39,030 nucleotides of DNA from Fundidesulfovibrio putealis DSM 16056 (GTDB lineage: Bacteria > Desulfobacterota > Desulfovibrionia > Desulfovibrionales > Desulfovibrionaceae), in assembly GCF_000429325.1 (NCBI RefSeq), contig NZ_AUBQ01000020.1, positions 1 through 39,030 on the forward strand, given 5' to 3'. This document shows positions 17,934-38,043 of this stretch, piece by piece. The translations under genes and the position numbers were made by a program. The notes beneath the pieces are model-generated. The model was given only the letters and a program-made list of their open reading frames with translations, was not told the origin of the DNA and searched no databases. The stretch's first letter is position 1, and every line of letters starts with the position of its first letter.

Positions 17934-17934
17934 G

Positions 17935-19197: not shown

Positions 19198-21216
19198 ATG
19201 AACACCCGTCTCGCAGTCGTGCTGGCTCTCCTGGTCCTGACGGTCTGTCCCGGCCTTGCATCAGCCCAGGACACCCAAAAGGACAAAGGGTCCGAAGTGA
19301 CCATGGAAGAGGTCAAGGTTGTCGCCCCCCCCATCATCGAGGGCAACCAGGTAGACCGGTACGCAGGCCAGACGACCACCGTCACCAAGGAGCAGGTGTC
19401 GGACATGAACGCGCCGGACATGACCTCGGCGCTCAGGCGCACTCCCGGCGTGACCATGTCCCGCTACAACGTGATCGGTTCCTACGGCGGGGCTGAAGGC
19501 GGCGGCGTGTTCGTCCGGGGTATGGGAACCAGTCGCCCCGGCTCCGAGCTGATGACCCAGGTGGACGGAGCGCCTGCGTACATGGGCCTGTGGAACCACC
19601 CGCTCATCGACTTCTTGAGCGTGGACCCGGCCTACAGCATCCGTATTTACAAAGGTGCCCAGCCCTTAAGCAGCTTCAACAACGCGTTCGTTGCTTTGGA
19701 CGTGACACCCAAGCGGGTGGAGAAAGAAGGGTTCTTCACCAAGGGAACCGGCCAGTACGGCAGCTTCAACACCTGGATGCAGACTGCCGAGCACGGCGGC
19801 AAAGTCGGTGACTTCGACTACTACGTGGGCCAAAGCTTCCGCAGTTCCGACGGCCACCGCCCCAACTCAGACGGACGCCTGGCGGCGTATTACGGCCTCG
19901 CCGGGTACAAGCTGAATGACAATCTGGAAGTCACCGGCACCATCCTGCACACCGACAACTACGCCAACGACCCCGGTCCGGAAGGCCAGCCGCAGAACCG
20001 CAGTGGCCTGTACACCACACAGTTCACCCACGGCGTGGTCACCCTGGCGGACAATTTCGAGTGGGGCAAAGGCCACCTCAAGCTCTACGCCAACAGCGGC
20101 ACCGGCTACTGGTACAACCAGACGGGCACGGCCAACGACACCCTGTCCGATTCCGTCCTTTACGGCGGACGCCTCCGGCACACCTTCAACTTCTGGAAGG
20201 GAGGCGAAATCCTCGCGGGCGCGGACCTGGACTTCATGAGCGGGCACGCCACGTTCACCAACGACCTGACCGTGCGCCTGGCCCGCCTAGGCGCGCTGAC
20301 CTATCCCGTCATCGCCAACAACCCCCAGGCGGAATTCCCCTGGCGCACCTGGAGCATCTTCACCCCGTACATGGGCGTCTCCCAGAAGTTCGGCGAAGGC
20401 GACAAGGACAAGAACAGAGACGACTGGTACATCATCCCTTCGGGCGGCGTGCGCCTCTACACGCACAGCGAGTTTCCCACCGAATGGTCGCCCCAGGCAG
20501 GCCTGGTTCTCGGCTGGAAAGGGCTTGAGGTGCATGGCAGCTACTCTCGCGGCGTGAGCTATCCGGGCCTCAACGTGGCCATCTTCTCGGCCAACGTCAT
20601 CCCGGCCCTGGGACAGCGCTGGAGAGACCTCAAGGCGGAAGTCACCAACCACTTCGAGGCAGGCGCTTCCTATGCTTACGAGGACAAGGCCAAACTGGAC
20701 GTAACCTTCTACTCGGACCACGGCACGAACCGCTACGTCATGTACCCCGCCACCGGTGCGCCCCAAGGGTTCGCCAACATCGCAAACTTCACTCTCCAGG
20801 GCGTCGAGTCCACCATCACCGTAACCCCCATGAAGAACCTGTCGCTTTTCGCGGGCATGAACTTTCTGAACACCGACCCCGATTCCATGCCGTACTCGCC
20901 CAAGTGGACTTTGAGTTTCGGCGCGAACTATCTGTTCCTGGACCACTTCAAGATCTCCGCCGATGCCCAGTATGTCGACCAGCAGTATGTCCTGTCTCAG
21001 GCCCGCAGGCTCAACACCTACAACACCAGCAAGGTGGACGCCTTCTGGCTGGTGAACGCCAAGTTCTCCTACCTCTTCCAATTCGAGACCTGGAAAAAGA
21101 CCGACGCCGAAGTGTTCGTGGCCGTGAACAACATCACCAACAGCTTCTACAAGTATCGCCCCGGATACCCCATGCCGCCGACCTCGGTCATGGGCGGGCT
21201 TTCCGTAAGCTTCTAG
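19198..21216 (+). CDS. TonB-dependent outer-membrane receptor, probably for a metal or metal chelate
   Basis: The 672-residue protein has a signal peptide (residues 1-23, ending GLASA-QD), a TonB-box-like segment (MEEVKVVAPP), a plug domain with DMTSALRRTPGVTMSRYNV, GGGVFVRGMG and MTQVDGAPAY, then a beta-barrel ending in LSVSF with the C-terminal phenylalanine of outer-membrane proteins. It would import a substrate too large or rare for porins, using energy from TonB. A dedicated TonB is encoded at 25105-26043. The ATG at 19198 follows AAGGA. The location beside nik genes and nikR suggests nickel or a nickel chelate; cobalamin or siderophore cannot be excluded. Two shared operator-like sites lie upstream. 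Confidence 0.9.
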   Translation: MNTRLAVVLALLVLTVCPGLASAQDTQKDKGSEVTMEEVKVVAPPIIEGNQVDRYAGQTTTVTKEQVSDMNAPDMTSALRRTPGVTMSRYNVIGSYGGAEGGGVFVRGMGTSRPGSELMTQVDGAPAYMGLWNHPLIDFLSVDPAYSIRIYKGAQPLSSFNNAFVALDVTPKRVEKEGFFTKGTGQYGSFNTWMQTAEHGGKVGDFDYYVGQSFRSSDGHRPNSDGRLAAYYGLAGYKLNDNLEVTGTILHTDNYANDPGPEGQPQNRSGLYTTQFTHGVVTLADNFEWGKGHLKLYANSGTGYWYNQTGTANDTLSDSVLYGGRLRHTFNFWKGGEILAGADLDFMSGHATFTNDLTVRLARLGALTYPVIANNPQAEFPWRTWSIFTPYMGVSQKFGEGDKDKNRDDWYIIPSGGVRLYTHSEFPTEWSPQAGLVLGWKGLEVHGSYSRGVSYPGLNVAIFSANVIPALGQRWRDLKAEVTNHFEAGASYAYEDKAKLDVTFYSDHGTNRYVMYPATGAPQGFANIANFTLQGVESTITVTPMKNLSLFAGMNFLNTDPDSMPYSPKWTLSFGANYLFLDHFKISADAQYVDQQYVLSQARRLNTYNTSKVDAFWLVNAKFSYLFQFETWKKTDAEVFVAVNNITNSFYKYRPGYPMPPTSVMGGLSVSF

Positions 21217-21235
21217 CTCCGCTCCACCCAACCCC

Positions 21236-21265
21236 GAGAGGCCTGGGCGCACGTCCGGGCCTCTC
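21236..21265 (+). terminator. Strong hairpin after the receptor gene, possible attenuator
   Basis: GAGAGGCC (21236-21243) pairs perfectly with GGCCTCTC (21258-21265), with further GC pairs inside. No run of T follows, so it may slow or trim the message rather than end it. The methyltransferase gene starts 17 bp later, so partial read-through from the receptor gene is likely. Confidence 0.5.
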
Positions 21266-21282
21266 CAGATTTGGAGAATCAC

Positions 21283-21984
21283 ATGGCGCAGAATACGGAC
21301 GTACAGGCCGGGTTCGAGAAGTGGCGGGTGTTCGAGAAGGCACGCAAAGCCAACCGCATGCACCACGCCGAAGCCTATGACACGCTGCTGCATACGCTCG
21401 CGGAAACCTTCAACCAGCCGCCGCGCATTCTCGATTTGGGGTGCGGCGACGCCAGGGACGTGGCCAGGGTGCTGCGCTTTGTCCCTGTGAGATCCTACTC
21501 CGGCGTGGACAACGACGCGGACGTGCTGGAGCGGGCGCGCGGATCGCTTTCTGGCGTGGGTGTTCCCGTGGACCTCAAGCTCGGGGGGTATGAAGAAGCA
21601 CTCAGCCAGCAGCCCGGATCATATGACGTGATCTGGCTGGGACTCTTTCTGCACCACCTGCCGCGCGCGCGGAAGGAAGCGTTCTTCACCCGGGCGCGTA
21701 CGCTCCTGCGCCCTGGCGGAGCCGTGATCGCGCACGACCCCGTCCTGGAGGACGGAGAAAGCCGCCAGGAGTACATTGCACGCATATCCAAGTCCTGCCG
21801 TTCGGGATGGCCCGAACTTACCAACGACGAAAAGGACATGATGACCCGGCACTGGGGACAGCATGGTCATCAGGAAAGCGCCGCGACGCTTGGAGCTATT
21901 GCCCTCAACGCAGGCTTCTCCAGCTTCGAGGAACTGTGGGCCGATGCCGACCGCTTTTATGCCGTGCTGGTGTTTTGGAACTGA
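21283..21984 (+). CDS. Class I SAM-dependent methyltransferase (island methyltransferase 1)
   Basis: The 233-residue protein has the SAM-binding motif I ILDLGCGDARDV, an acidic motif II in YSGVDNDADVL, motif DVIWLGLFLHHL and LLRPGGAVIAHDPVL, the usual Rossmann-type methyltransferase sequence order. It is cytoplasmic. The start ATG 21283 has GGAG upstream. It follows the TonB receptor by 66 bp and precedes a second, different methyltransferase by 59 bp, in the same direction as the transporter genes, so it belongs to the metal-import operon. The substrate is unknown; a small-molecule metal chelator would fit the context, but nothing in the sequence proves it. Confidence 0.85.
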   Translation: MAQNTDVQAGFEKWRVFEKARKANRMHHAEAYDTLLHTLAETFNQPPRILDLGCGDARDVARVLRFVPVRSYSGVDNDADVLERARGSLSGVGVPVDLKLGGYEEALSQQPGSYDVIWLGLFLHHLPRARKEAFFTRARTLLRPGGAVIAHDPVLEDGESRQEYIARISKSCRSGWPELTNDEKDMMTRHWGQHGHQESAATLGAIALNAGFSSFEELWADADRFYAVLVFWN

Positions 21985-22043
21985 CCGGGTTGGTTTTATT
22001 TTTTAGTGTCTCGTGCTATCGTGACTGCTCAAAGGGGGAACGC

Positions 22044-22658
22044 ATGAGCGATCCAAGAGCGGCATTTTTCGACGAACGCGCCAAACAGTGGGAAACGAAC
22101 TGTTACCCGGACAACGTCCGGGAGCGCCTGTGGCCTATGGTCGAATCACTGGGGCTTCCCAGGGGCGGGGTTGTCCTGGACATGGGCTCCGGGCCGGGAA
22201 CGATTTTGCCATACGAACGCAGGGCAGTTGGGCCCGGCGGGGTCATCTTCTCCTTCGACGTCTCTTTCGAGATGATGCGTCAGGCCATTGCCAAGGAACC
22301 GGGCGGGAGCATGTGCCGCATGCAGGCCACGGCCATGTTTCTGCCCCTCAAGGATGCCTCCTTCGATGCCCTGGTCTGTTTCGCGGCCTTCCCTCATTTC
22401 TGCGACAAGCCTGCCGCCATGGCGGAAATGGCCCGTGTTGCCAGGCCTGGAGCGACGCTTTTCATCGCCCACCTGTTGAGCCGCGAAGAACTCATGCGCC
22501 ATCACGGCGGGCATCCTGCCGTGGCAAATGACTGCCTGCCTGACGAAGCCGCCATGCGGGAGCTGTTCCAGAGCGCAGGTTTCGACGAACCGGACATCAT
22601 CGACATGCCGGGCCGGTATTTGGCCAAGGCCCGCAAACGCACGGCAGGAACCGCATGA
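22044..22658 (+). CDS. Class I SAM-dependent methyltransferase (island methyltransferase 2)
   Basis: The 204-residue protein has VLDMGSGPGTIL as motif I, FSFDVSFEMM as motif II, ATAMFLPLKDASFDALVCF and VARPGATLFIAH in a UbiE/Methyltransferase-11-like layout. The ATG at 22044 follows AAAGGGGG. Its stop overlaps the start of the metal-binding protein gene (ATGA at 22655), so the two are translated together. The sequence is not close to methyltransferase 1, so this is not a simple tandem duplication. C22 near TNCYPDN and a His/Cys cluster (FPHFCDKP) are notable but not a known metal site. Substrate unknown. Confidence 0.85.
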   Translation: MSDPRAAFFDERAKQWETNCYPDNVRERLWPMVESLGLPRGGVVLDMGSGPGTILPYERRAVGPGGVIFSFDVSFEMMRQAIAKEPGGSMCRMQATAMFLPLKDASFDALVCFAAFPHFCDKPAAMAEMARVARPGATLFIAHLLSREELMRHHGGHPAVANDCLPDEAAMRELFQSAGFDEPDIIDMPGRYLAKARKRTAGTA

Positions 22659-23476
22659 CTCCGTTCATCAGGCTGCTGGCTGTTCTTCTGTCCCTGTCCG
22701 TGCCCGCCCTGGCGCAGGACCGGTTGGAGGTCATGGCCGGGACTTCCCTCATCGAAGACATCGTTACCGACCTGGGCGGCTCGCGCGTCGCGGTGAAGAC
22801 CATCATCCCCGCCGCAGCCTGCCCCGGACACTACGACATCCGCACCTCCGACGTGGCCTATCTGGCGCAGGCCAGGATCATTCTCCTGCACGACTGGCAG
22901 GAGCGCATGCCCGCGATGGTCTCCATTCTGGACGCAGTCTCGGGGGCCAGGGAGCGCGCCGTGGTGGTCCAGGTTAAGGGCAACTGGATGGTCCCGGATC
23001 GTCAGGTCGAAGCCGTCAGGGCCGTGGAGTCGATCCTGGAGCGTGTTGATCCAGGCCACGCCGCTGCGTATCGCGAAAAGTCGCTGGACCGGCTGCGGAT
23101 GGTGGAGGCTGCCGGAGAGAGGATGCGAGAACGGATGAAACAGGCGGGGCTTCTGAACACCCCCGTGATGTGCGACGTGATGCAACGTCCGTTCGTGGAG
23201 TTGTTGGGACTTGCGGTGGTGGCCGACTATGGCCGCTTCGAGGAGATGGGGCCGGAGGCCTTGGCCAAGGCCCTGAACGCCGCCAAGGCGGCGGGCGCGC
23301 GCCTTGTGCTTGACAATATGCAGTCCACCGGTGCGGCGGGCAAGGCGCTGGCCGACGACCTGGGCGCGGCCCATGCGACGCTGTCCAATTTTCCGGGCGG
23401 GTATCCCGGGGCGGACACCTGGGAGGCGGCGGTCTCCAAGAATGTGGACCTCATTCTGGCGGCGCTGGGTAAATGA
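22655..23476 (+). CDS. ZnuA/TroA-like periplasmic metal-binding protein
   Basis: The 273-residue protein is a cluster A-I metal-binding lipoprotein-type relative with a plain signal peptide (residues 1-21, ending ALAQ). The first metal-ligand region is recognisable: CPGHYDIRTSD with His59, then LHDWQERM. It lacks the His-rich loop seen in zinc-specific ZnuA. CDVMQRPFVELLG and LVLDNMQSTG occupy the positions of the later ligands without the usual histidines, so specificity is likely altered. Together with the next two genes it forms a complete ABC importer. ATGA overlaps on both sides (22655 and 23473) show tight translational coupling. A nickel chelate, cobalt or heme-like ligand is possible; zinc is less likely. 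Confidence 0.8.
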   Translation: MTPFIRLLAVLLSLSVPALAQDRLEVMAGTSLIEDIVTDLGGSRVAVKTIIPAAACPGHYDIRTSDVAYLAQARIILLHDWQERMPAMVSILDAVSGARERAVVVQVKGNWMVPDRQVEAVRAVESILERVDPGHAAAYREKSLDRLRMVEAAGERMRERMKQAGLLNTPVMCDVMQRPFVELLGLAVVADYGRFEEMGPEALAKALNAAKAAGARLVLDNMQSTGAAGKALADDLGAAHATLSNFPGGYPGADTWEAAVSKNVDLILAALGK

Positions 23477-24273
23477 ACGCCGTAGCCAGTGGCAGCCTGG
23501 GGCATCCCGTCGCGGCTTTGCATTCCGTGCGGATACTGCGGCGCGGCATCCTGGCATTGGACATCGAGCATCTTGAGATCGCCGAGGGGGAGTGCCTGGG
23601 AGTGATCGGCCCCAACGGGGCGGGCAAAAGCACCTTGCTGGCCGCGCTTGCCGGGCTGTTGCGGCCCGACTCGGGGCACATTGAGTTCTTCGGCAAAGCC
23701 TTGGACAGCGCAAGCGCCACGGCGCTTCGCAAACGTGTCGCCACAGTCGCGCAGTTGGCCGCTGTGGACCCGAGGCTTCCCATCACGGTGCTGGAATCGG
23801 TGATGACCGGCGGGTTCGGGCGGCTCGGCCTCTGGAAAAGGGCAGGCCGGGAGCTTGCGGCCAAGGCCACGCAGATGCTGGAGTTGACAGGCATCGCGCA
23901 TCTGTCCGACCGGCCCCTGGGCCTGGTGTCTGGAGGCGAACGCCAGAGGACAGCCGTGGCCAGGGCGCTCACCCAGGAGCCGGACATCCTGCTCCTGGAC
24001 GAACCCACTTCGGCGCTGGACTGGAAGTCGCAGCGCGAGGTGTTGGCCCTCATCCGCGACATCCATGCGCGACTCGGCCTGACGGTCGTCCTGGTCACGC
24101 ACGACCTGAACGCCCTTCCGGGAATGTGCGACCGCGTGGCCTACATACAGGGCGGAGCGATCAGCTGGCTGGGACCCTCCGCCGAAGCGCTCGATCCAGA
24201 GCGCCTTTCCGAACTCTACGGCACGACATTCACCGTGCTCGACCACGGCGGCCTGCCCGTGGTCCTGTTCTGA
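23473..24273 (+). CDS. ZnuC-like ABC transporter ATPase
   Basis: This cytoplasmic ATPase of 266 residues drives the importer with the binding protein before it and the permease after it. Walker A GPNGAGKSTLL, Q-loop VAQLAAVDPRLP, signature LVSGGERQRTAVARAL, Walker B ILLLDEPTSALD and the H-loop LVTHDLNA are all present. It overlaps the binding-protein gene by 4 bp. The C-terminal end (LYGTTFTVLDHGGLPVVLF) is typical of manganese/zinc/iron-chelate ATPases. Confidence 0.9.
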   Translation: MNAVASGSLGHPVAALHSVRILRRGILALDIEHLEIAEGECLGVIGPNGAGKSTLLAALAGLLRPDSGHIEFFGKALDSASATALRKRVATVAQLAAVDPRLPITVLESVMTGGFGRLGLWKRAGRELAAKATQMLELTGIAHLSDRPLGLVSGGERQRTAVARALTQEPDILLLDEPTSALDWKSQREVLALIRDIHARLGLTVVLVTHDLNALPGMCDRVAYIQGGAISWLGPSAEALDPERLSELYGTTFTVLDHGGLPVVLF

Positions 24274-24281
24274 GCATCCTC

Positions 24282-25118
24282 ATGGACATGAGCCCTTTCG
24301 ATCACGCCTTCATGCGCCACGCCCTCCTGGCCGGGGTATTTGCCGGAATTTCCTGCGGGCTGGTGGGCGTGTTCGCCGTGCTCATGCGCCTCACGTTCAT
24401 CGGGGTCTGCCTGGCGCACGCAGCCTTTGCGGGTGGGCTGGCCGCGTTGCTCTTCGGGTTGGATCCCCTGCTGGGCGCGCTGGTCTTAAGCGTCGGGGCC
24501 GCAGCCGTGATCGGTCCGCTCGCCGACAAGGGGGAGGTCTCCCCGGACACCGCCGTTGGCGTCGTGTTCACCGCCATGCTTGGCGTAGCCATCCTGTGCC
24601 TGGGCATCATGCCGGGGCCGAAATCCGCAGGGCTGAATCTTTTGTGGGGCTCAATCCTTACCGCCAGCAAACGCGACGTCTGGCTTCTGGGCGGGGTGAG
24701 TTTCGTGGTGGTCGGCGGAATTATCCTCTTTTACAAGGAAATCCTGGCCGTGACCTGCCACAGACATGTGGCCGCCCTGGCCGGAATACCCGCGACTGCC
24801 ATCTTCTACGCGATCCTCTTCGCCACGGGGATGACTGTCACGGCCTGCTTGCCGAGCGTCGGTGGACTTTTGGTGTACAGCCTCATCATCAACCCCGCCG
24901 CCGCAGCCTACCAGCTCACCTACAGGCTTTCCTGGATGTTCGTGTTTGCGGCAGCGCTCGGAGCCGTCAGCTGCACCATGGGGCTCTTCCTGGCATGGTA
25001 TGCCGATGTGCCCGCCGGGGCGGCCATCGTGGTGTCTTCCAGTCTCATATTCCTTGTCTGTTCCTTCTTCTCGCCCAAGAACCGCTCTCAAAGCGGGAAG
25101 GCACATGCGCCCCGCTGA
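24282..25118 (+). CDS. ZnuB-like ABC transporter permease
   Basis: The 278-residue membrane protein has about eight hydrophobic segments and the ABC-3 family blocks CGLVGVFAVLMRLTFIG, CLAHAAFAGGL and VSPDTAVGVVFTAML, then PSVGGLLVYSLIINPAAAAY near the end. The ATG at 24282 lies 8 bp after the ATPase gene. The ribosome site is weak, so coupled translation is likely; ATG 24288 is an alternative. Its end overlaps the TonB gene by 14 bp. It completes the ZnuABC-like importer. Confidence 0.88.
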   Translation: MDMSPFDHAFMRHALLAGVFAGISCGLVGVFAVLMRLTFIGVCLAHAAFAGGLAALLFGLDPLLGALVLSVGAAAVIGPLADKGEVSPDTAVGVVFTAMLGVAILCLGIMPGPKSAGLNLLWGSILTASKRDVWLLGGVSFVVVGGIILFYKEILAVTCHRHVAALAGIPATAIFYAILFATGMTVTACLPSVGGLLVYSLIINPAAAAYQLTYRLSWMFVFAAALGAVSCTMGLFLAWYADVPAGAAIVVSSSLIFLVCSFFSPKNRSQSGKAHAPR

Positions 25119-27147: not shown

Positions 27148-27198
27148 TTGTCCCTGGCTTCGGCCTGAACATGACTCCAAACATTGACGGAGAATCCG

Positions 27199-28147
27199 AT
27201 GAGACTCACAGCCATTCTGCTTTCGCTTCTTGTCGCGCTTGCACTTTCAGCCTCGCCCCCTGCGGCAGCCCAAGAGGCCCCGGCCAAGGTTGGCACCTGG
27301 AAGACCGCCCAGACCATTCAGCCCTTCCTCTACGAGCAGTATTCCCCAGGCTTCAGGGTGGATGTCCATCCGTTCACGAACCCTGGGGACCAGAAAGCGG
27401 CCCTCTTGGCGGGCAGTCTGGACATGACCGGAACGACCCTTGGCCCTGGCGATCCAGGCCGCGTCTCGCGGTGAACCCGTTGTCCTCGTGGCGGCGCTGT
27501 GCAACAAATGCTCGGCGCTTGTCGTCCGCAAGGGGTCAGGGCTGGCCTCTATCCAAGATCTCAAAGGCAGGCGCATAGGCTACGTTCCAGGAACCATGCA
27601 TGAAATTCTCCTGCGAGAGACCCTTGCCCGGGTAGGGTTGGACCCAGTCAAGGATGTGTCCTTGGTGCGTGTGGACTTCTTCGACATGGGCACAGCTCTC
27701 GCAAAGGGGGACATTGACGCTTTTCTCTCTGGAGAGCCGTTGCCAACTCAGGCCGTGTTGCAAGGCTATGGCGACATCCTCGCCTACCCCTATTTCGACG
27801 ATTCTGTCGGCCCTATCAATGCCGGAATGATCGTGCGCAGGGATACCATCGAAAAATCTCCTCAAAAGGTCGAACGCCTGGTCGCCGCCCATGTCAGGGC
27901 GACAAGAACGCTCCAGTCGGACAAGACAGTCTGGCTCTCCGAGGCGTCAAAGCGCTTCGGCGTGGACCTCGCCGTGCTGGAAGCGGCGTCGAAAAACATG
28001 GAACTGGCCTGGGATATGGACGATACGTTTGTCAGGCAGTTGGCGGCGCTTGGCTCCCGCATGAAGGCTCTGGGCATGATCGAGAGGGAACCCGACTACA
28101 ACGCCCTGGTGGACAGGAGATTCGTGTCGAAAATGGGCGGGGAATAG
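27199..28147 (+). pseudogene. NMT1/NitT-TauT-type periplasmic binding protein with one frameshift
   Basis: The ATG at 27199 (GGAG upstream) begins a signal peptide ending PAAAQEA, then VGTWKTAQTIQPFLYEQYSP and DMTGTT. An extra C in the CCC run at 27437-27439 shifts the frame to an early stop at 27474. The other frame continues the protein from LALAIQAASRGEPVVLVAAL to the end at 28147. Removing one C gives 315 residues, normal for this family. CNKCSALVVRKGSG, with a CxxC, lies where NMT1/THI5-like proteins have a cysteine-rich motif. The indel is in a homopolymer, so a sequencing error is a real possibility; with it, the importer would work. Ligand unknown. Confidence 0.85.
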
Positions 28148-28153: not shown

Positions 28154-28939
28154 GTGAGGATCACGCCATGCCAATGGGGCTCGGCCTTGGCCCTGCCCTT
28201 TGCAGCTCTTCTGGTCTGGTGGCTGGCCGCGAGGCTGGCTTTCCTGCCTGAATATGTCCTTCCGTCCCCTGCAAGCGTGCTGTCCGCACTTGGCGCGTAC
28301 GTCTTTGGTTCAAACAGCCAGAACGCATACGGCGGCAGGTTTCTTGGCGACTTCGTATCAAGCATGACTCGTATCGGTTGCGGGTTCTTCCTTGCCGTAC
28401 TTGCCGGACTTCCGCTTGGCCTTGCCTCTGGCAGGATTTCGGCCTTGCGATGGCTGCTCACCCTGCCTGTCGGCGGACTACGTGCCGTCCCCGGGATATG
28501 CTGGCTGCCACTGGCCCTTGTCTGGCTGGGCATCGGTTTCAAGACCACTGTTTTTCTGATAGCGATCGCCGCATTTTTTCCCATCTACCTGAATTCGGCA
28601 TCCGGCGCGTCTTCCGTGCCTGCCGTGCTGGTGCGGGCGGGGTCCATGCTTGGTCTGTCCCGAATCGCGGTATCCTTCAGAATCATCCTTCCAGCATCCA
28701 TGCCCCATATTCGGACAGGCCTGCGACTGGGCCTCGGCCTGAGCTTCGCCTACCTCGTCCTAGGAGAACTGACGGGGGTTCCCGACGGCATCGGGGCCAT
28801 GATCATGGATGCACGGCTTCTTGGCAGGGTCGATATGATCATGGCCGGGATCATCCTCATGGCCGTTCTCGGCTGGGTGGCGGATCGGCTTCTTGTCCTG
28901 ACCTTGCGCACGGCGTTCAAAAGCGCGAGACGGTCATGA
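28154..28939 (+). CDS. NitT/TauT-family ABC transporter permease
   Basis: The 261-residue protein has about six membrane segments and the binding-protein-dependent transport signature near GLSRIAVSFRIILPASMPHI, followed by GLRLGLGLSFAYLVLGEL. The GTG at 28154 lies 6 bp after the binding-protein gene and overlaps the ATPase gene by 4 bp at its end. It is part of the importer with its neighbours. Related transporters take up nitrate, taurine or pyrimidine precursors of thiamine; here the partner radical SAM gene sets it apart. Confidence 0.85.
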   Translation: MRITPCQWGSALALPFAALLVWWLAARLAFLPEYVLPSPASVLSALGAYVFGSNSQNAYGGRFLGDFVSSMTRIGCGFFLAVLAGLPLGLASGRISALRWLLTLPVGGLRAVPGICWLPLALVWLGIGFKTTVFLIAIAAFFPIYLNSASGASSVPAVLVRAGSMLGLSRIAVSFRIILPASMPHIRTGLRLGLGLSFAYLVLGELTGVPDGIGAMIMDARLLGRVDMIMAGIILMAVLGWVADRLLVLTLRTAFKSARRS

Positions 28940-31593: not shown

Positions 31594-32426
31594 AGCTCCT
31601 CCCCCTCGGCTTTGTTCATGGCCGTGAGGTTCCTCAAGCCGTCACCGGCCAGAGTGAACGCCAGGGTGGCCAGGACGATGGCTCCTCCAGAGGCCAGGGC
31701 GATGTGCGGCGCGATGGTCAGCACGGGGAGTCCTTTCTGGAGCATAGCGCCCCACTCTGGTGTCGGCGGTGGGACGCCCAGGCCCAGCATGCCAAGCCCG
31801 GCGATGCTGACGATCTTCTGTCCCATGCCGATGGTGGCGATGGCCCCTACCGGTTCGGCCAGTCCTGGCAGATAGCAACGGCGCACCAGATACCAGCGGT
31901 TGGCTCCGAGCGCGCGGGTAGCTTCCACAAAGGTCCTGTGGCTTATGCCGAGCGCCGTATTGCGAACCACGCGCGCGTATTTGGGCCAGCCGGGAAGAAT
32001 CAGCGCGATGGCTATGCTGTTGATGCCCGGCCCCATGACTCCCACAAGAACCAGGACGAGCACCATGGACGGAAAGGAGAAGAAACAGTCCGTGACCCGC
32101 ATGAGCGGTCCATCCAGAGGCTTTGCCAGGACGGCCGCGAGGCCCACAACAAGCCCCAGACATACTGTCCCGACCGTCACCACGCACGCCAGACCCAGCG
32201 TCGGCCTGATGCCATATATGATCCGGCTGGCTACGCAACGGCCAAGGCTGTCGGTCCCCAATGGGAATTCAACGGAAGGGCCGCGCAACCGTTTCGCCAG
32301 GTATTGCTCCTCCGGTGCATGGGGAGCGATCCACGGAGCGAAAGTGCCAGCGGCCAGGAGCGCGACGAGCAGGAGGCACCCCGTGATGAATCCGGCCCTG
32401 CCCGGTTTCGTGCTCCGTTCAGGCAT
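31581..32426 (-). CDS. nikC: Nickel/oligopeptide-type ABC transporter permease (NikC/DppC-like)
   Basis: The 281-residue inner-membrane protein has the DppC N-terminus (APWIAPHAPEEQYLAKRLRG, FPLGTDSLGRCVASRIIYG) and about six membrane segments, with the transport signature near EATRALGANRWYLVRRCYLP. The start ATG 32426 overlaps nikB by 8 bp. It forms the channel with NikB. Confidence 0.87.
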   Translation of the reverse strand: MPERSTKPGRAGFITGCLLLVALLAAGTFAPWIAPHAPEEQYLAKRLRGPSVEFPLGTDSLGRCVASRIIYGIRPTLGLACVVTVGTVCLGLVVGLAAVLAKPLDGPLMRVTDCFFSFPSMVLVLVLVGVMGPGINSIAIALILPGWPKYARVVRNTALGISHRTFVEATRALGANRWYLVRRCYLPGLAEPVGAIATIGMGQKIVSIAGLGMLGLGVPPPTPEWGAMLQKGLPVLTIAPHIALASGGAIVLATLAFTLAGDGLRNLTAMNKAEGEELWLK

Positions 32427-33354
32427 TGCGGGTCCTGGGGTCCAGAATCCATTGCAGAATGTCCACCCCGAGGTTGATGAGCACGTATACGGCGGCAATG
32501 GCCAGGACGCAGCCCTGCACCACGGCCACGTCGCGCGCGTTGATGGAGTCTACCAGCAGCCGCCCAAGCCCCGGCCAAGCGAAGATAGTCTCCACCACCA
32601 CCGCGCCGCCGAAAAAATAGCCGAACTGGGCTCCGACGTAGCTGGTCATGGGCACGAGGGCCTGCTTGAGCGCATGCTTCCAGACGACTGCACGGCGCGA
32701 AAGGCCCCTGGCGCTGGCGGCGACGAGGTGCTTTTCTTCCAGGGCCTGCAACATGCCCGCCCGCATGAGCCTGGACGAAATGGCCGCATTGGTCAGGCCA
32801 AGCGTGAGCGCCGGGAGGATGAGCCCGCTCGCCTTTGAAAAACCCGCCACCGGTGTGAGGCCGAGGGTAATGGAGAAGAGCAGTATCAGGATGAGGCCCA
32901 GGAAAAAGTCCGGGATGCACCCGAACAGCAGGGAACCTCCCAGGGTCAGATGATCCACGGGATGCCCCCTTCTCATGGCGGAAGCCACGCCGACGGGAAC
33001 AGCCAGCAGCAGGCCGATGGCCAGCGCCGAGCAGGCCAGTGCGGCGGTAGGGGGGAAGACGCGCGCCAATTCCTGGATGACCGTGCGCCCTGTCTGGTAC
33101 GATCGGCCAAGGTCTCCAGAGAGAACCGTCCCCATCCAACGGGCGTACTGGAGCGCCAGAGGATCATTCAGGCGCATTTCGCGGCGCAGATCCTCAACCG
33201 CCTGTTCAGGAGGCACATCAATGCCGGTCCTGGAGGCCAGGCTGATGGACGCCACATCGCCAGGGGTCATGCCCATGGCTGCGAAAGCCAGAAGGCTGAT
33301 CCCGAAGAGCACGGGGACCATGGCCAGCAGCCTTCGCAACACGTATCCCGTCAT
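32419..33354 (-). CDS. nikB: Nickel/oligopeptide-type ABC transporter permease (NikB/DppB-like)
   Basis: The 311-residue protein starts MTGYVLRRLLAMVPVLFGIS, the normal DppB/NikB first membrane segment, and has GDLGRSYQTGRTVIQELARV, then MRAGMLQALEEKHLVAASARG with the transport signature, and about six membrane helices. The start ATG 33354 overlaps the stop of the methyltransferase gene by 4 bp, so an enzyme gene is inserted between binding protein and permease without breaking translation. Confidence 0.88.
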   Translation of the reverse strand: MTGYVLRRLLAMVPVLFGISLLAFAAMGMTPGDVASISLASRTGIDVPPEQAVEDLRREMRLNDPLALQYARWMGTVLSGDLGRSYQTGRTVIQELARVFPPTAALACSALAIGLLLAVPVGVASAMRRGHPVDHLTLGGSLLFGCIPDFFLGLILILLFSITLGLTPVAGFSKASGLILPALTLGLTNAAISSRLMRAGMLQALEEKHLVAASARGLSRRAVVWKHALKQALVPMTSYVGAQFGYFFGGAVVVETIFAWPGLGRLLVDSINARDVAVVQGCVLAIAAVYVLINLGVDILQWILDPRTRNA

Positions 33355-34091
33355 GCGCGCTTCACGGCGGTCACGGCGTGGGAGGTCCACCCGTCGCCCC
33401 TGAGCCAGCGCCGGAACGGCCCGTCCGTGGCCCGGTCCACGTCCTTGTCCACGCGCAGTACCGTGAGTCCGCAGGATTGCAGGTGTTCGGCGATCTGCTC
33501 TGCGTTGATCCTGGGCAGTTGGGCGTCGAAGTTGGCGTAGCAGGCGTCCCGCCAGCCGGGCTTGCGGCCAGTGAGAAGATAGTCCGTCCACTGCCCCCGC
33601 CAGCGGGCCAGCTTGCTTTGCTTGAGGACTGTGCCGTCGATGAATGCGGCCACGCCTCCAGGCCTGAGCACCCGGACAGCCTCCGACAGGGCCGCTCGTG
33701 GATCGGGAAGAGTCCAGAGCACCCAGCGGCTCACCACGGCGTCCACGCTGGAGTCAGGCAGGTCCACGTTCTCAGCGTCCCCTTGCCACAGGCGGACCCT
33801 GGAGGCGAGACCCTGGCGCTCCAGAGTCGCTCTGGCCCGGGCCAGCATGTCCTCGGACAGGTCGAAACCAAGCACCTCGTGCCCGTGCTCCGCCAGGATG
33901 GCAGTGATGTATCCGGTTCCCGCGCCCATTTCCAGGACGGTGGCCCCCGAAGGCAGTCCGCTGAGCATCCCCTGGATGTAACTGCTCCAACCCTGGCTGC
34001 GGGAAAGCCACTTGTAGGCGTCGTAGGCCTTGGCGTTGGAAGCGTTCCAGCGCTGCCACCGCATGAACTGCTTCACTTCCTGGCTGGCCAT
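33351..34091 (-). CDS. Class I SAM-dependent methyltransferase inside the nik operon (island methyltransferase 3)
   Basis: The 246-residue protein has motif I VLEMGAGTGYIT, motif II VLGFDLSEDMLA, DLPDSSVDAVVSRWVLWTL and RVLRPGGVAAFIDGTVL, a UbiE/Methyltransferase-11-type core. The stretch before the core (FMRWQRWNASNAKAYDAYKW) is rich in Trp and Tyr and may hold the substrate. Its start overlaps the nikA stop (TGATG) and its stop overlaps nikB, so it is co-translated with the transporter. It does not resemble a nicotianamine-synthase-type enzyme. A role in making, altering or breaking down a nickel ligand is the simplest guess; the sequence does not prove it. Confidence 0.88.
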   Translation of the reverse strand: MASQEVKQFMRWQRWNASNAKAYDAYKWLSRSQGWSSYIQGMLSGLPSGATVLEMGAGTGYITAILAEHGHEVLGFDLSEDMLARARATLERQGLASRVRLWQGDAENVDLPDSSVDAVVSRWVLWTLPDPRAALSEAVRVLRPGGVAAFIDGTVLKQSKLARWRGQWTDYLLTGRKPGWRDACYANFDAQLPRINAEQIAEHLQSCGLTVLRVDKDVDRATDGPFRRWLRGDGWTSHAVTAVKRA

Positions 34092-35632
34092 CACTTCAAC
34101 TCCAAGGTCTCAAGGCTGAAGGTCTGCTCCGTGGGGTGCATCCGGTAACCAGATACCTTCTTGGAAACCAGATCGATGTTCACGTAGTAGTTGAGATAGG
34201 CCATGGGCATGTCGGCCTCCAGGAGGACCTGCACCTCGTCGTACATCTTCTTGCGTTCGCCCTGGTCGAATGTCGTCCTCGCTTTCTGGAGCAGTCCGTC
34301 AAGAGCGGCGTTCTTGTAGTGATACGCTCCCCAGCCCTTCTTGAAGGTGTTTTCGGAGAAGTAGTCCATCATGAGGTTGTCGTCCGGGTCGGGTACGAAC
34401 AACAGGCCGCGTCCCAGAAGATAGAGGTCGAAATCCCCCGCGTCCCTGGTCTGTTCGGCGGCGCTGACCTGCATGGACACAACGTCGCAGCCGATGCCGA
34501 CCTTCTTGAGCTGCTGCTGGATCACCTCGGCCATGGGCGGCAGCTCGGCCCGCTCCGGGTAGGTGAGCAGCTTCACGCGCAGGGGCTTGCCGTCCTTGTC
34601 CAGGATGCCGTCGCCGTTGGCGTCCTTCCAGCCTGCCTGGGCCAGGAGCGCCTTGGCCCCTTCGGGGTCGAAGGCGAACCCCTTGAGGCTGGCGTTGGCC
34701 CAGGACACCTGGGGCGGGAAGAGAGTCTTGGCGGGCTCACCGATTCCGTCCAGGTTCGCCTCGACTATCTCCTGGCGGTTCACGGCCAGGTTCACCGCCT
34801 TACGGACACGGATGTCGGAGAAGGGGTCGCGCGACAGGTTGAAAGCCATCATGCGGCAACGGCCGATAGGCATGGTGTGTATGGAAAACTCATTGGATTT
34901 CGCCAGGGATTTCGCGGCGTCGGCAGGCATGATCTGGGCCACGTCCAGTTCGCCGCCGCGCAGCATGGCCAGCCTGGTGAGCGCGTCCGGCACGGATTTG
35001 TAGACAACCTTGTCCAGCTTGGGCTTGACCGGCCCCCAGTGCGCCTTGTTGGCCGCCAGGGTGATCTCCTCCTTGAGCTTCCATGACTCCACGGAGAACA
35101 CACCCGTTCCCACCGGCTTCACCAGTTCTCCGGCCTGGTCGAAGGACGAGGGAGCAAGTGCTCCGGCCTCGCCCCGAGCGAGATACGCAGGCAGGGGGGA
35201 AAAGGGCGAGGTGGTCTTGAAGACCAGGGTCTTGTCGTCGGGAGCCTCCACCGAGGCCATGGGGACGTTTTTCAGCAGCGCCCCCTTCTTGATGGTTCGT
35301 TGCAATGCGTCCCGGAAGGCAGGGGCGGTTAGAGGAGTTCCGTCATGGAAGCGCACGCCGTCGCGCAGGGTGAATCTCCATGACAGTTTGTCATCGGAAA
35401 CCGTCCAGGCCGTTGCGAGACAAGGCTGGATGTTGAGCTTTTCGTCTAGGGTCGTCAGGCCCTCCACCACCCCAAGACGGGTGAACATGTACCCGTCGAC
35501 CTGGGGATCCATGGTTTTGGGCGACCAGGGAGCTCCCAGCCGCAGCGTGCTTTCCGCAGCCCAGGCCGGGCCGGAGTACAAGCAGACCAAGGCGAACAGG
35601 ACGAAAGCAGAGCGTATCAGAACATGATTCAT
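34091..35632 (-). CDS. nikA: Nickel/peptide-type periplasmic binding protein (NikA/DppA-like)
   Basis: The 513-residue extracytoplasmic protein has a signal peptide (residues 1-25, ending AWAAES), then family 5 features: LRLGAPWSPKTMDPQVDGYM, TLRDGVRFHDGTPLTA, RDPFSDIRVRKAVNLAVNRQ, and a C-terminal domain with a calcium-loop-like DANGDGILDKDGK. ATG 35632 follows GGGGAG. It is a normal length. NikA proteins bind nickel as a complex with small ligands such as histidine or opines; related proteins bind peptides. The methyltransferase that follows immediately and nikR nearby suggest a nickel chelate. Confidence 0.86.
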   Translation of the reverse strand: MNHVLIRSAFVLFALVCLYSGPAWAAESTLRLGAPWSPKTMDPQVDGYMFTRLGVVEGLTTLDEKLNIQPCLATAWTVSDDKLSWRFTLRDGVRFHDGTPLTAPAFRDALQRTIKKGALLKNVPMASVEAPDDKTLVFKTTSPFSPLPAYLARGEAGALAPSSFDQAGELVKPVGTGVFSVESWKLKEEITLAANKAHWGPVKPKLDKVVYKSVPDALTRLAMLRGGELDVAQIMPADAAKSLAKSNEFSIHTMPIGRCRMMAFNLSRDPFSDIRVRKAVNLAVNRQEIVEANLDGIGEPAKTLFPPQVSWANASLKGFAFDPEGAKALLAQAGWKDANGDGILDKDGKPLRVKLLTYPERAELPPMAEVIQQQLKKVGIGCDVVSMQVSAAEQTRDAGDFDLYLLGRGLLFVPDPDDNLMMDYFSENTFKKGWGAYHYKNAALDGLLQKARTTFDQGERKKMYDEVQVLLEADMPMAYLNYYVNIDLVSKKVSGYRMHPTEQTFSLETLELK

Positions 35633-35650
35633 GGCAGACTCCCCGTGATT

Positions 35651-35689
35651 GCGTGCTGACATTTCCGTTGCACGCTATCCCTTATCGTG
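35651..35689. promoter_or_regulatory. Two overlapping palindromes in the nikA/methyltransferase divergent region
   Basis: GCGTGC (35651-35656) and GCACGC (35670-35675) form a perfect inverted repeat with a 13-bp spacer. CACGCTATCCCTTATCGTG (35671-35689) is a second, imperfect palindrome. Both overlap the -10 of the likely nik promoter. They are not the GTGTWAC type seen at 18.9-19.1 kb. Confidence 0.4.
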
Positions 35690-35700
35690 GCACATTTCAA
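35672..35700 (-). promoter_or_regulatory. Putative promoter of the nik operon
   Basis: On the minus strand TTGAAA (35695-35700), 17-bp spacer, TAGCGT (35672-35677). The start codon of nikA lies 40 bp downstream. Both elements are near but not equal to consensus. Confidence 0.45.
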
Positions 35701-35760
35701 GCACCAATGGGCTTGTCGTGCTACAGCGCCCGCCCGCGAACTGAAAGGAGCAGCACATCC

Positions 35761-36576
35761 ATGGACATTGATTGGCAAAGCCTTTGGCGTGAGGCCGTCG
35801 CGAAGACCAGCGCCGTGAGCCATGTGGGATACTGGAACGAACGTGCGAACGACTACGATAACTTCATACGCTCCAGCCGCTTCGCCTACGGTGAAGCCAT
35901 GTCGGAGATCCTGGTCAGGGAGGGGATGTTGTCTCCTTCGGGGACAGTGCTGGAGATCGCGTCCGGGGTCGGAGCCGTGACATTGCCCCTGGCTCAGCGA
36001 TGCGCCTTGGTGACCGCGCTGGAACCGGCTGAGCGAATGGCGGACCGGTTGCGCCAAAATGCCCGTGATCGCGGCATTTCCAACATCGACGTCCGGGTCC
36101 AGACGCTTGAGCAGGCCCAGGGGACAGTCGTTCCCGGCTCCTTCGACCTCACGCTCATGTGCCATGCCTCCTGGCAGTTCCCGGAGTTCATGGCAGTCGT
36201 GGAGTTCATGGACAGAGCTTCAAGGCTCGGCGGTTGCATCGCTGATACGGCCGGATTCGACGACCAGACCCAGGGCGAGATGTACGATGCGCTGGGGATC
36301 AAAGCGGATTGCCCCGACCGTTTTCCCTACCTGTTCAACCTCCTCTATTCTGGAGGCTATTACCCGAACGTCAGGATGATACCCTACGCCATGCGCCGCT
36401 CAATTGATTCGGCCCTAAGCATGTGGCGGCTATTGATCGGGAAATACCGCACTCCCACAGAGCAGGACCTGGCTCTCATCGAAAGCCATGTCCATGCGAG
36501 GGCTGAAGACGGCATGTACGAGGTGCCCTCTGTCATGGCTGTGCTGTGGTGGAAGAAGAAACAGGCCACAAAATGA
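35761..36576 (+). CDS. SAM-dependent methyltransferase (island methyltransferase 4)
   Basis: The 271-residue protein has motif I VLEIASGVGAVTLPL, motif II VTALEPAERMAD, SFDLTLMCHASWQF, then a long C-terminal extension (FPYLFNLLYSGGYYPNVRM, ESHVHARAEDGMYEVPSVM). The N-terminus HVGYWNERANDYDNF is a substrate-cap region. ATG 35761 follows AAAGGAG at 10 nt. It begins a plus-strand run with the membrane protein and nikR, divergent from nikA. It is distinct from the three other methyltransferases. Substrate unknown. Confidence 0.85.
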   Translation: MDIDWQSLWREAVAKTSAVSHVGYWNERANDYDNFIRSSRFAYGEAMSEILVREGMLSPSGTVLEIASGVGAVTLPLAQRCALVTALEPAERMADRLRQNARDRGISNIDVRVQTLEQAQGTVVPGSFDLTLMCHASWQFPEFMAVVEFMDRASRLGGCIADTAGFDDQTQGEMYDALGIKADCPDRFPYLFNLLYSGGYYPNVRMIPYAMRRSIDSALSMWRLLIGKYRTPTEQDLALIESHVHARAEDGMYEVPSVMAVLWWKKKQATK

Positions 36577-37526
36577 TGGATGACCTGGTCAGCGGGGCGT
36601 GGCACGGCATGCGGCTTTGCCTCACCGTGCTGCCGCCAATGTTCGCCGGATGCCTGGCGGGCAGCCTTTTCGCAAACACGAAGTTCGGCATGCGATGTTG
36701 CGCTGTATTTTCTCCGTTGGCGCGCCTGACTGGTCTGCACGGGCCTTCGGCCCTGTATTTCCCGCTTTGCTTCTTCAATTTTCATTCGGCCAATGCCTAT
36801 CTGTCATCCCTGTTGCGCAGGGAGATCGTCGAGGAACAGGATATCCTGGGCATCTATCTCGTGGGATGGCTTCCGGCGAGTCTTAACTTTTATATTTTTT
36901 TCACCGCCCCAGCCTTGTTTCCCGGCATCGGCACGATTCCAGCCTGTATCGTGCTCGCATTGTACATTCTGGCAAGCATACTGATTTTCGGCGCTGGAAC
37001 CGTACTGGTACGCCGGAGGAACCGCCGGACCGACCGGGAAACCCTCCAGGCCACGCCAGTTTCCGTCTGCCCGCGATGGCCTGGGCTTCCTGCCGTGCTT
37101 AAGGATGGCACTAGGCAGTTCTGGAGCATTGCGTCAGTTTTCGTCCCGTGCCTTCTTGCCGTTGAAATGCTGCTGTCGCTCCAGGCTGTCCGTACGAGTA
37201 TGGACCAGGCAGGCGATCTCTTCGCCGGGGCAGGGGTGTCCCCCACGGCGGCGCTGGTGGTGGCCGCCGCCTTGCCGAGCGTCATGGGTGGCTTCGCCAC
37301 GGCCATCGCCTTTCTGGGGGATTCGCTCCTCACGGTGGGACAGGTTCCGAAAATACTGATGATTGCTGCGATCGGGCATGCCCTGTTTTCTGCCTTCTCC
37401 TATTTCCTCCCGGCAAATGTTGCGGTGTTTGGTCCCGGCCTGGGTACAAGGTTGACCTTCAAGAGTCTGGTCATCCGCCTCCCCTGCCTGCTGACCGCGC
37501 TCGCCGTAGCAGCTGCGATCGAATAA
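36573..37526 (+). CDS. Gate-domain (nucleoside-recognition-like) membrane protein, candidate metal transporter
   Basis: The 317-residue protein has about eight hydrophobic helices in two similar halves around a basic loop (VRRRNRRTDRETLQ). GPSALYFPLCFFNFHSANAY and LVVAAALPSVMGGFATAIAF occupy equivalent places in the halves, as in Gate-domain proteins. Such proteins include transporters for nucleosides and others of unknown cargo. The start overlaps the methyltransferase stop (ATGA at 36573), and nikR follows after 97 bp. The FNFHSAN segment puts a His in a helix and could contact a metal. Efflux or uptake of nickel or of a modified ligand is a guess from position. Confidence 0.65.
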   Translation: MMDDLVSGAWHGMRLCLTVLPPMFAGCLAGSLFANTKFGMRCCAVFSPLARLTGLHGPSALYFPLCFFNFHSANAYLSSLLRREIVEEQDILGIYLVGWLPASLNFYIFFTAPALFPGIGTIPACIVLALYILASILIFGAGTVLVRRRNRRTDRETLQATPVSVCPRWPGLPAVLKDGTRQFWSIASVFVPCLLAVEMLLSLQAVRTSMDQAGDLFAGAGVSPTAALVVAAALPSVMGGFATAIAFLGDSLLTVGQVPKILMIAAIGHALFSAFSYFLPANVAVFGPGLGTRLTFKSLVIRLPCLLTALAVAAAIE

Positions 37527-37623
37527 TGCACATGCAGTGACGATGCCGTGAGGGCCGCATGCTGATGGTGCGCTCCATAAAGTCATTCTACGAAACACAA
37601 CCGGCCATGCTTGGAGGATGATG

Positions 37624-38043
37624 ATGGGCAAGACAATCCGGTTCGGCGTGTCGCTCAATTCCGATCTGCTGGAACAGTTTGACGCGCTGTGCGAGGAAAA
37701 AAGTTATCCTAACAGGTCCGAGGCCATCCGAGACCTCATTCGCGCCGTCCTGGTGGAAAAGGAACAGCAGATAAACGAAGGAGCACTCGCTGCGGTGCTC
37801 ACGCTGGTGTACGACCACCACGTATCGGACCTCTCCCAGCGTCTGGTGGAAATCCAGCATGACGGGCACGAGGTGATCCTGACCACCGTCCATGTTCACC
37901 TGGACCACCATAACTGCCTGGAGGTGCTTATCCTGAAGGGGAACGGTGAGGCGATACGCCGCCTTTCGGACAAGCTGATCGCCACCAAGGGAGTGAAACA
38001 CGGGAAACTGACCCTTACCACCACCGGCCAGAATTTGATGTGA
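37624..38043 (+). CDS. nikR: Nickel-responsive regulator NikR
   Basis: NikR is a ribbon-helix-helix repressor with an ACT-like nickel domain. The 139-residue product from ATG 37624 has the DNA-binding strand [10 protein letters not shown] and helices ([13 protein letters not shown]), then the metal domain. His79, His90, His92 and Cys98 sit at the exact spacing of the square-planar nickel ligands of E. coli NikR (76, 87, 89, 95), within HVHLDHHNC. The GGAGG at 37613-37617 fits 37624 best; ATGs at 37618 and 37621 are alternatives. It is the last gene of the methyltransferase 4 run or stands on its own promoter in the 97-bp gap. It is the only recognisable metal-dependent DNA-binding regulator in the window. 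Confidence 0.95.

What the first reader, a model, noticed from the sequence alone, without database searches (positions are those of the whole stretch)
19198..38043. A nickel-type acquisition island with four distinct methyltransferases and a radical SAM enzyme built into its transport operons
Seen: a TonB receptor, ZnuABC-like importer, TonB, NitT/TauT-type importer, Nik/Opp-type importer, Gate-type membrane protein and NikR in 19 kb. Four unrelated-looking class I methyltransferases (21283, 22044, 33351, 35761) and a BioB/HydE-like radical SAM enzyme (26218) are translationally coupled or closely spaced with them. Known: opine metallophore operons carry nicotianamine-synthase-like and opine dehydrogenase genes; none is seen here. 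Inference: the island may make, tailor, import and then break down or recycle a methylated nickel ligand by a route not yet described.
Basis: partly seen in the sequence, partly recalled or inferred. Interest (0 to 1): 0.85.

Follow-up and report, generated by a model that had tools for sequence, protein, structure and literature searches.

The report
Nickel importers with built-in methyltransferases
A sulfate-reducer-like bacterium carries, side by side, two nickel-starvation import systems, each with its own methyltransferase genes that also travel with these importers in distant relatives, which suggests that adding a methyl group is an unrecognised step in taking up nickel.

Summary
The 'island' is a stack of three separable modules. 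Module A (TonB receptor, MT1, MT2, Znu-like ABC, TonB): a search seeded with its binding protein found 15 other loci in 395 phylum genomes; an MT2 homologue sits beside it in 12 of 15 and a nikR gene in 5 of 15. Module C (Nik/Opp-type ABC with MT3 and divergent MT4): a NikA-seeded search found 8 loci (two known before), all with MT3/MT4 homologues beside the transporter, four of them in Methanosarcina-type archaea. The NikA|MT4 spacer carries a published NikR-type operator in 6 of 6 bacterial loci against 12 of 719 control promoters. Module B (radical SAM plus Tau-type ABC) is a stand-alone cassette (17 of 20 loci) with background levels of NikR-like sites; nothing ties it to nickel. So nickel and methyltransferases are genuinely linked, but one five-enzyme ligand pathway is not supported. 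I propose that the methyltransferases act on the imported nickel ligand to release the metal; ligand synthesis is the main rival. Reaction and ligand remain unknown.

The parts
19198..21216 (+). Module A: TonB-dependent receptor (NikR-linked family)
   Evidence: Pfam Plug; homologue in 13 of 15 module-A loci; its only plasmid hit (25% identity) lies directly after nikR in Parabacteroides
21283..21984 (+). Module A: MT1, class I methyltransferase, nearest solved relatives BelI/CysG
   Evidence: orthologues in 2 other genomes of 99 searched, L054 and L055
22044..22658 (+). Module A: MT2, class I methyltransferase with invariant C112, H118, H143, H154, D163
   Evidence: beside the ZnuA-like gene in 12 of 15 loci; residues in 15 of 15 rows
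22655..23476 (+). Module A: Znu-like binding protein with CPGH signature
   Evidence: PF01297; C56-P-G-H59 in the 18 rows printed
23473..24273 (+). Module A: ABC ATPase
   Evidence: PF00005
24270..25118 (+). Module A: ABC-3 permease (ORF open from 24126; start chosen by me)
   Evidence: PF00950
25099..26043 (+). Module A: TonB (ORF open from 24862; start chosen by me)
   Evidence: PF03544
26218..27147 (+). Module B: BioB/HydE-like radical SAM protein, CX3CX2C
   Evidence: beside the Tau-type cassette in 17 of 20 loci
27198..28147 (+). Module B: NMT1/SsuA-type binding protein, broken by a frame change near 27.44 kb
28154..28939 (+). Module B: permease
   Evidence: PF00528
28945..29676 (+). Module B: ATPase (ORF open from 28378; start chosen by me)
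   Evidence: PF00005
29705..30670 (-). Module C: OppF/NikE-type ATPase (ORF open from 30922; start chosen by me)
   Evidence: PF00005, PF08352
30655..31593 (-). Module C: OppD/NikD-type ATPase
   Evidence: PF00005, PF08352
31581..32426 (-). Module C: OppC/NikC-type permease (ORF open from 32498; start chosen by me)
   Evidence: PF00528
32419..33354 (-). Module C: OppB/NikB-type permease (start chosen by me)
   Evidence: 44-51% to OppB-type proteins of relatives; not run against Pfam in this frame
33351..34094 (-). Module C: MT3, class I methyltransferase
   Evidence: PF08241; beside NikA in L050/L057, L056, L059
34091..35635 (-). Module C: NikA/Opp-type binding protein
   Evidence: PF00496, NF045468 271 bits below its cut-off of 600; orthologues 47-58% in bacteria and archaea
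35667..35693 (-). Reversed NikR-type operator (7-13-7, 2 mismatches) between NikA and MT4
35761..36576 (+). Module C: MT4, class I methyltransferase with conserved Cys pair 158-159
   Evidence: AlphaFold model pLDDT 92.6
36573..37526 (+). Membrane protein beside MT4, also in L052
   Evidence: 50% to an L052 protein; no Pfam match
37618..38043 (+). NikR, second copy of this genome
   Evidence: PF08753; the only genome of 42 with two matches
19068..19089 (+). Two exact NikR half-sites GTAACAC (19068, 19083) upstream of the receptor
   Evidence: one other exact half-site in the window (38282); spacing is not that of the published pair
12909..17996 (-). hydF, hydE, aspA-type lyase, hydG: [FeFe]-hydrogenase maturation genes divergent from module A
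   Evidence: hydG/hydE also beside nikR and module A in L112, hydF/E/G beside module C in L063

Best explanation
The stretch is a nickel-starvation island built from two NikR-controlled import systems, each with dedicated class I methyltransferases, with an unrelated radical SAM/Tau-ABC cassette between them. Proposed working: when nickel is scarce NikR lets go; the TonB receptor and TonB carry a nickel complex into the periplasm; the CPGH-type Znu-like importer and the Nik/Opp-type importer move it to the cytoplasm; there MT2, MT3 and MT4 methylate the ligand, possibly while it still holds the metal, so that nickel is freed and not bound again. The neighbouring hyd genes would serve the nickel-free hydrogenase under the same condition. 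Shown: gene content, conserved methyltransferase-transporter linkage, association with nikR genes and NikR-type operators. Inferred: that nickel is the metal carried, that the methyltransferases act after import, and on the ligand.
For: Linkage from transporter-seeded searches: 8 of 8 NikA loci carry MT3/MT4 homologues (6 of 6 if the two contigs known before are left out); 12 of 15 ZnuA-like loci carry MT2, the three misses lying at contig ends at or next to the cluster. Nickel: nikR in 5 of 15 other module-A loci; a receptor homologue right after nikR in Parabacteroides; NikR-type operators in 6 of 6 NikA|MT4 spacers, 0 of 400 shuffles reaching six, 12 of 719 control promoters; 8 of 16 receptor promoters against 27 of 645 controls, Fisher 2.6e-7. 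The consensus is from PMC545781 (passages with Table 4 seen). Acting after import: no scaffold gene recognised in the modules, NAS in 0 of 8 bacterial genomes, no exporter kept with the modules; in three of four Methanosarcina-type loci the unit looks like ABC genes plus two methyltransferases. MT2 has C112, H118, H143, H154 and D163 in 15 of 15 rows.
Against: No ligand, methyl acceptor or metal has been measured. The window's own receptor promoter fails the paired-site test (best 4 mismatches), having only half-sites. The E. coli NikA histidine that I recall as a Ni ligand (His416) aligns with an acidic residue, and the Znu-like protein lacks the usual histidines. A haloarchaeal Nik-type operon 38% alike shows no methyltransferase in the 15 kb read. 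Distant MT4-like proteins are not enriched near ABC ATPases: 12 of 37 loci (one of the 37 could not be scored), 14 genes in 278 kb near against 9 in 237 kb beyond 4 kb. MT2's residues are partly shared by homologues away from such clusters: three Streptomyces ones keep H118 and H143, three alphaproteobacterial ones keep C112; none of the six has the full set. The control genome Methanosarcina acetivorans does have a NAS-family gene, so a made ligand is possible in archaea. An MFS-type transporter gene lies by the module in L064.
Confidence: 0.42

Rival explanations
1. The methyltransferases make the nickel ligand: each methylates a common metabolite (an amino acid, thiol or carboxylic acid) into a simple nickelophore that is released and re-imported by the same module.
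For: Metallophore operons usually hold biosynthesis with uptake (recalled). MT1's nearest solved relatives are carboxylate O-methyltransferases of malate-type acids with a His-His-Asp metal site, and MT1 keeps the His-His pair. Module A has an outer-membrane receptor, which implies a complexed substrate. Methanosarcina acetivorans, a control genome, has a NAS-family gene, and an MFS-type gene lies by the module in L064.
Against: No exporter or scaffold gene is kept across the module loci read; NAS in 0 of 8 bacterial genomes. His-His at that place is common in class I methyltransferases (recalled).
Confidence: 0.3
2. The methyltransferases serve a housekeeping or regulatory job, such as methylating the transporter, a cofactor or RNA, and are merely co-regulated with nickel uptake.
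For: Class I folds give no substrate; best NCBIfam hits are generic and below cut-off (CpaM, DVU_1556); MT4's fold neighbours are varied, including S-, N- and O-methyltransferases.
Against: Specific families are held beside transporters across families of Desulfobacterota and in archaea.
Confidence: 0.15
3. The imported substrate is not nickel but another metal, such as zinc or cobalt, or an organic compound.
For: The binding proteins lack known nickel and zinc ligands; in Methanothermobacter a ZnuABC next to nikR was read as possibly zinc-linked (PMC3087415 passages); CbiK genes lie in the window and by MT4-like loci L068 and L074.
Against: nikR in module-A clusters and NikR-type operators.
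Confidence: 0.13

Closest known systems
E. coli NikABCDE / Nik-Opp nickel importers
   Same: Five-gene ABC with SBP_bac_5 binding protein, NikR-type operator
   Different: NikA below NCBIfam cut-offs, E. coli His416 position not kept, methyltransferases inside or divergent from the operon
Staphylopine/pseudopaline (Cnt) opine metallophore systems
   Same: NikA/CntA-like ABC, TonB receptor in Gram-negatives, SAM-dependent enzyme beside it (features of Cnt recalled)
   Different: No NAS-like enzyme (0 of 8 genomes), no opine dehydrogenase found (0 of 8, but without a positive control)
ZnuABC/MntABC-type importers
   Same: ZnuA-like, ATPase and ABC-3 permease in one operon
   Different: CPGH signature in place of the usual histidines, linked to a TonB receptor, MT2 and in 5 of 15 loci nikR
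NikR-controlled NikMNQO/NikKMLQO of deltaproteobacteria (PMC545781)
   Same: Same operator consensus, including the reversed form
   Different: Different transporter class; the term methyltransferase does not occur in that paper's main text
BelI/CysG carboxyl O-methyltransferases (PMC11408123)
   Same: MT1 matches BelI at 1.7e-12 and keeps the His-His pair
   Different: Substrate unknown; the Asp of the triad not located
BioB/HydE/PylB radical SAM enzymes
   Same: Profile of the family matches BioB and HydE structures
   Different: Far below BioB and PylB cut-offs (34 vs 225, 18 vs 348); sits with a Tau-type ABC

Membership tests
NikR regulon | nikR gene in the cluster | tested here: met
   window (next to module C), and 5 of 15 other module-A loci; none seen by the other module-C loci read
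NikR regulon | NikR operator (7-N13/14-7) at the promoter | tested here: met
   Module C 6 of 6 vs 12 of 719 controls; module A 8 of 16 vs 27 of 645 but not the window receptor promoter itself; module B 2 of 21
NikR regulon | Nickel-dependent repression by NikR | not testable with these tools
   Needs experiment
NikABCDE nickel importer (NCBIfam equivalogs) | NikA score over the curated cut-off | tested here: not met
   NF045468 270.8 vs 600; TIGR02294 231.9 vs 393
NikABCDE nickel importer (NCBIfam equivalogs) | Nickel-contacting histidine of E. coli NikA | tested here: not met
   Aligned to an acidic residue; the role of that residue is recalled
Opine metallophore (Cnt) system | Nicotianamine-synthase-like enzyme (PF03059) | tested here: not met
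   0 of 8 genomes; control genome Methanosarcina acetivorans rang
Opine metallophore (Cnt) system | Opine dehydrogenase (PF10100) | tested here: inconclusive
   0 of 8, but no control genome rang
ZnuABC zinc importer | ZnuA-type protein with ATPase and ABC-3 permease | tested here: met
ZnuABC zinc importer | Canonical metal-binding histidines of ZnuA | tested here: not met
   CPGH stands at the first motif and the second His motif is missing; which residues are canonical is recalled
Biotin synthase BioB | Score over NCBIfam cut-off | tested here: not met
   34.4 vs 225
Class I SAM methyltransferases | Methyltransferase domain over Pfam gathering score | tested here: met
   MT1-MT4; MT4 model matches class I methyltransferase structures
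Class I SAM methyltransferases | Transfer of methyl rather than aminocarboxypropyl group | not testable with these tools
   Needs assay

The most novel reading that the evidence does not exclude
Anaerobes, both sulfate reducers and methanogens, use a 'methylate-to-release' nickel uptake: a nickel chelate is imported and a dedicated methyltransferase caps the ligand's donor group, so that nickel is freed irreversibly. The importers and the MT2/MT4 families would define a new class of nickel acquisition, NikR-controlled in bacteria and shared with Archaea.
Probability: 0.28. Interest if true: 0.83.

Novelty: new variant of a known kind. Interest (0 to 1): 0.62.

Why it matters
Hydrogenases, CO dehydrogenase and methyl-coenzyme M reductase need nickel, and how sulfidic anaerobes win it is poorly known. 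A methyltransferase kept with NikR-linked importers in Desulfobacterota, and with related importers in Methanosarcina, points to a defined chemical step and perhaps an unknown nickel ligand, and gives named genes to test in strains that can be manipulated, such as Methanosarcina. It also gives a way to recognise nickel importers now labelled zinc or peptide transporters.

Tried and rejected
One pathway for all five enzymes: rejected, since the modules occur apart.

Radical SAM as part of nickel handling: not supported; it goes with the Tau-type ABC in 17 of 20 loci and NikR-like sites upstream are at background (2 of 21 vs 27 of 645). Nine of the 12 radical SAM loci first read had no such cassette.

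MT4-like family as a general transporter partner: rejected for distant members, although 5 of the 37 (L066, L067, L069, L082, L088) have a NikA-type protein beside them. NikR presence as a co-occurrence test: useless, 41 of 42 genomes have it. Cobalamin or other riboswitch: 0 Rfam matches at gathering scores. NikR sites in four archaeal spacers by the bacterial pattern: none (best 5-6 mismatches). ZnuA-like protein in the five genomes behind L060-L064: 0 of 5, no positive control. A first small control for module A gave 6 of 34, a higher rate than the later 27 of 645. With other settings module A gave 9 of 16 against a shuffle mean of 0.94, highest 5 of 500 shuffles. A second library for the MT4 model was not available.
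Full report
What is there. The window is one whole contig of a 4.7 Mb genome. Reading order: receptor, MT1, MT2, ZnuA-like, ATPase, permease, TonB on plus; radical SAM, NMT1-type binding protein, permease, ATPase on plus; OppF, OppD, OppC, OppB, MT3, NikA on minus; MT4, membrane protein, NikR on plus. The NMT1-type gene is split between frames near 27.44 kb. HydG, an aspA-type lyase, HydE and HydF lie on minus upstream of the receptor.

Three modules, not one pathway. I searched 99 genomes of the family (own included) for single proteins: radical SAM 20 of 99 at E<=0.001, MT3 3 of 99 at 1e-25, MT4 7 of 99 at 1e-10, MT1 3 of 99 at 1e-10. Neighbourhoods show module A whole and in order in a same-genus genome that has no radical SAM hit (L054) and without tonB in the stretch read of another genus (L055), module C in L050-L053 and, with MT3, in the 2.5 kb of L056, and module B in L025, L030 and L032 (9 of the 12 radical SAM loci read have no such cassette).

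Module C seeded by its binding protein. All 8 have MT homologues beside the transporter: MT4 in 7 (two copies in five of these 7), two MT3-like genes in the eighth (L059), a 5.7 kb contig. Four are Methanosarcina or Methanosarcinaceae, one is an archaeon MAG (L059), two are Desulfovibrio MAGs, one is Salidesulfovibrio brasiliensis, where hydF, hydE and hydG lie next to it. The neighbours that I ran for Methanosarcina spelaei (L060, six genes) are a valine-tRNA ligase, an HMG-CoA reductase, an HAD-type hydrolase, two kinase (APH-type) relatives and an acetyltransferase relative; I take the ABC genes and two MT4 copies as the unit. In L064 an MFS-type gene follows. A haloarchaeal Nik-type operon, 38% alike in NikA, shows no methyltransferase.

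Module A seeded by its binding protein. With an alignment of three sequences (window, L054, L055) 16 of 395 phylum genomes match at 1e-20. I read all 15 other loci: MT2 in 12, receptor in 13, nikR in 5 (L107, L109, L110, L112, L116, four genera); the three without MT2 end at or next to the cluster (L105, L108, L113). In L112 nikR, MT2, the importer and the receptor share a strand, and hydG and hydE run away from the receptor, as hydG does in the window. A weak MT4-like gene also lies near in L111, L113 and L114. In the plasmid collection the receptor's only hit (25% identity) lies directly after nikR in Parabacteroides distasonis, without a methyltransferase.

Module B seeded by its binding protein. 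22 of 395 genomes match at 1e-60, the weakest at 1.1e-123. I read 20 of the 21 others (G368, at a contig edge, was left out): radical SAM beside it in 17, permease in 19; tblastn finds no radical SAM in the other three. The profile of the radical SAM family is closest to BioB and HydE structures, but the window protein is far below the BioB cut-off.

NikR operators. PMC545781 (passages with Table 4) gives the deltaproteobacterial NikR site as GTGTTAC-N13/14-GTAACAC and, for some genes, reversed sites, which I merged to GTRACAC-N13-GTGTWAC. I had noticed the repeat in four of the spacers before testing it, but the consensus is independent of them. With at most 3 mismatches it is in 6 of 6 bacterial NikA|MT4 spacers (window 35667-35693, L050/57, L051, L052, L053/58, L063; L051 and L052 share a genus); none of 400 shuffles reaches six and 12 of 719 control promoters have it. 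One of the two best controls, upstream of L088:4912-6924, is the promoter of the large gene beside a NikA/MT4-like cluster. Before receptors either form is found in 8 of 16 against 27 of 645 controls (Fisher 2.6e-7), before radical SAM genes in 2 of 21; a first, smaller control set gave 6 of 34. The window receptor promoter has no good pair but two exact half-sites at 19068 and 19083; the whole window has three exact half-sites. NikR itself is in 41 of 42 genomes searched and only the window genome has two.

The proteins. MT2 keeps C112, H118, H143, H154 and D163 in 15 of 15 sequences. Of six plasmid homologues taken as controls, the three Streptomyces ones keep H118 and H143 (two also H154 and D163) but not C112, the three alphaproteobacterial ones keep C112 but not H118 or H143; none has the full set. 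These places flank the methyl site in class I folds (recalled), so a metal or a metal complex could sit there. MT4 has a Cys pair, C159 invariant in 13 of 13 rows and C158 nearly so; its model is confident (pLDDT 92.6), and the 50 best listed of 1976 fold matches are class I methyltransferases at TM (query) 0.41-0.68, thiol and histamine enzymes among them, which does not fix a substrate. MT1 matches BelI/CysG (PMC11408123 passages). MT3 shows no comparable metal-type residues in seven rows aligned. The ZnuA-like protein has a CPGH signature instead of the usual histidine motifs.

Mechanism. Shown: linkage, NikR association, fold classes. Inferred: nickel is the cargo, as a complex since a TonB receptor takes part; the methyltransferase acts inside. 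I prefer action on the imported ligand over synthesis because no scaffold or exporter gene is kept in the loci read and nicotianamine synthase is in 0 of 8 bacterial genomes, and because the archaeal unit seems to hold only importer and methyltransferases. Against this, the control archaeon Methanosarcina acetivorans has a NAS-family gene; I did not test whether it sits with the MT4 module or whether that species has the module. The margin over synthesis is modest.

What is known. Passages of PMC545781, PMC2667541, PMC3087415 and PMC11247825 (the last also section 18) describe NikR, NikMNQO, Nik/Opp and receptor genes; none of the passages seen mentions SAM methyltransferases with nickel importers, and PMC3087415 notes nikR beside ZnuABC in Methanothermobacter, read there as possibly zinc-related. 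Searches of the held open library listed no paper on methyltransferases in nickel importers, judged by titles and abstract starts; three of these listings were cut (20 of 28, 6 of 7, 20 of 51 shown), and subscription papers are not held, so this is not proof of absence.

Noticed in passing
window 7418-8275; L068, L074: A CbiK-type chelatase gene lies in the window beside an IS21 element; homologues (36-37%) lie near TonB receptor and MT4-like genes in L068 and L074.
   Followed up: partly
window 8248-10682: IS21-type transposase pair (rve/Mu-type and IstB) between the CbiK gene and the hyd genes.
   Followed up: no
window 27198-28147: Binding-protein gene of the radical SAM cassette is split between two frames; homologues with open frames in the 20 other loci read.
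   Followed up: partly
window 12909-19198; L112; L063: [FeFe]-hydrogenase maturation genes lie beside nickel-import modules in three unlike loci; PMC545781 predicts NikR control of an [FeFe] hydrogenase.
   Followed up: partly
G000:C7:162620-162850 and window 37789-38019: The genome has two NikR genes; of the other 41 genomes searched 40 have one and one has none.
   Followed up: partly
L117-L134: A conserved radical SAM plus Tau-type ABC cassette across several Desulfobacterota families, function unknown.
   Followed up: partly
window 11206-12876: 556-codon frame without Pfam match, with a relative (48% over 202 aa) by the hyd genes of Salidesulfovibrio brasiliensis.
   Followed up: no
window 1-12000: G+C rises from 47% to about 58% over the left third; to the right of it blocks lie at 59-67%.
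   Followed up: no
L064 (Methanosarcina sp. MAG): Three Nik/Opp-type transporter clusters in 21 kb, with MT3-like genes by two and MT4 copies by the third.
   Followed up: no
L137 (Parabacteroides distasonis plasmid): nikR followed by a TonB receptor related to the window's (25%), without a methyltransferase.
   Followed up: partly
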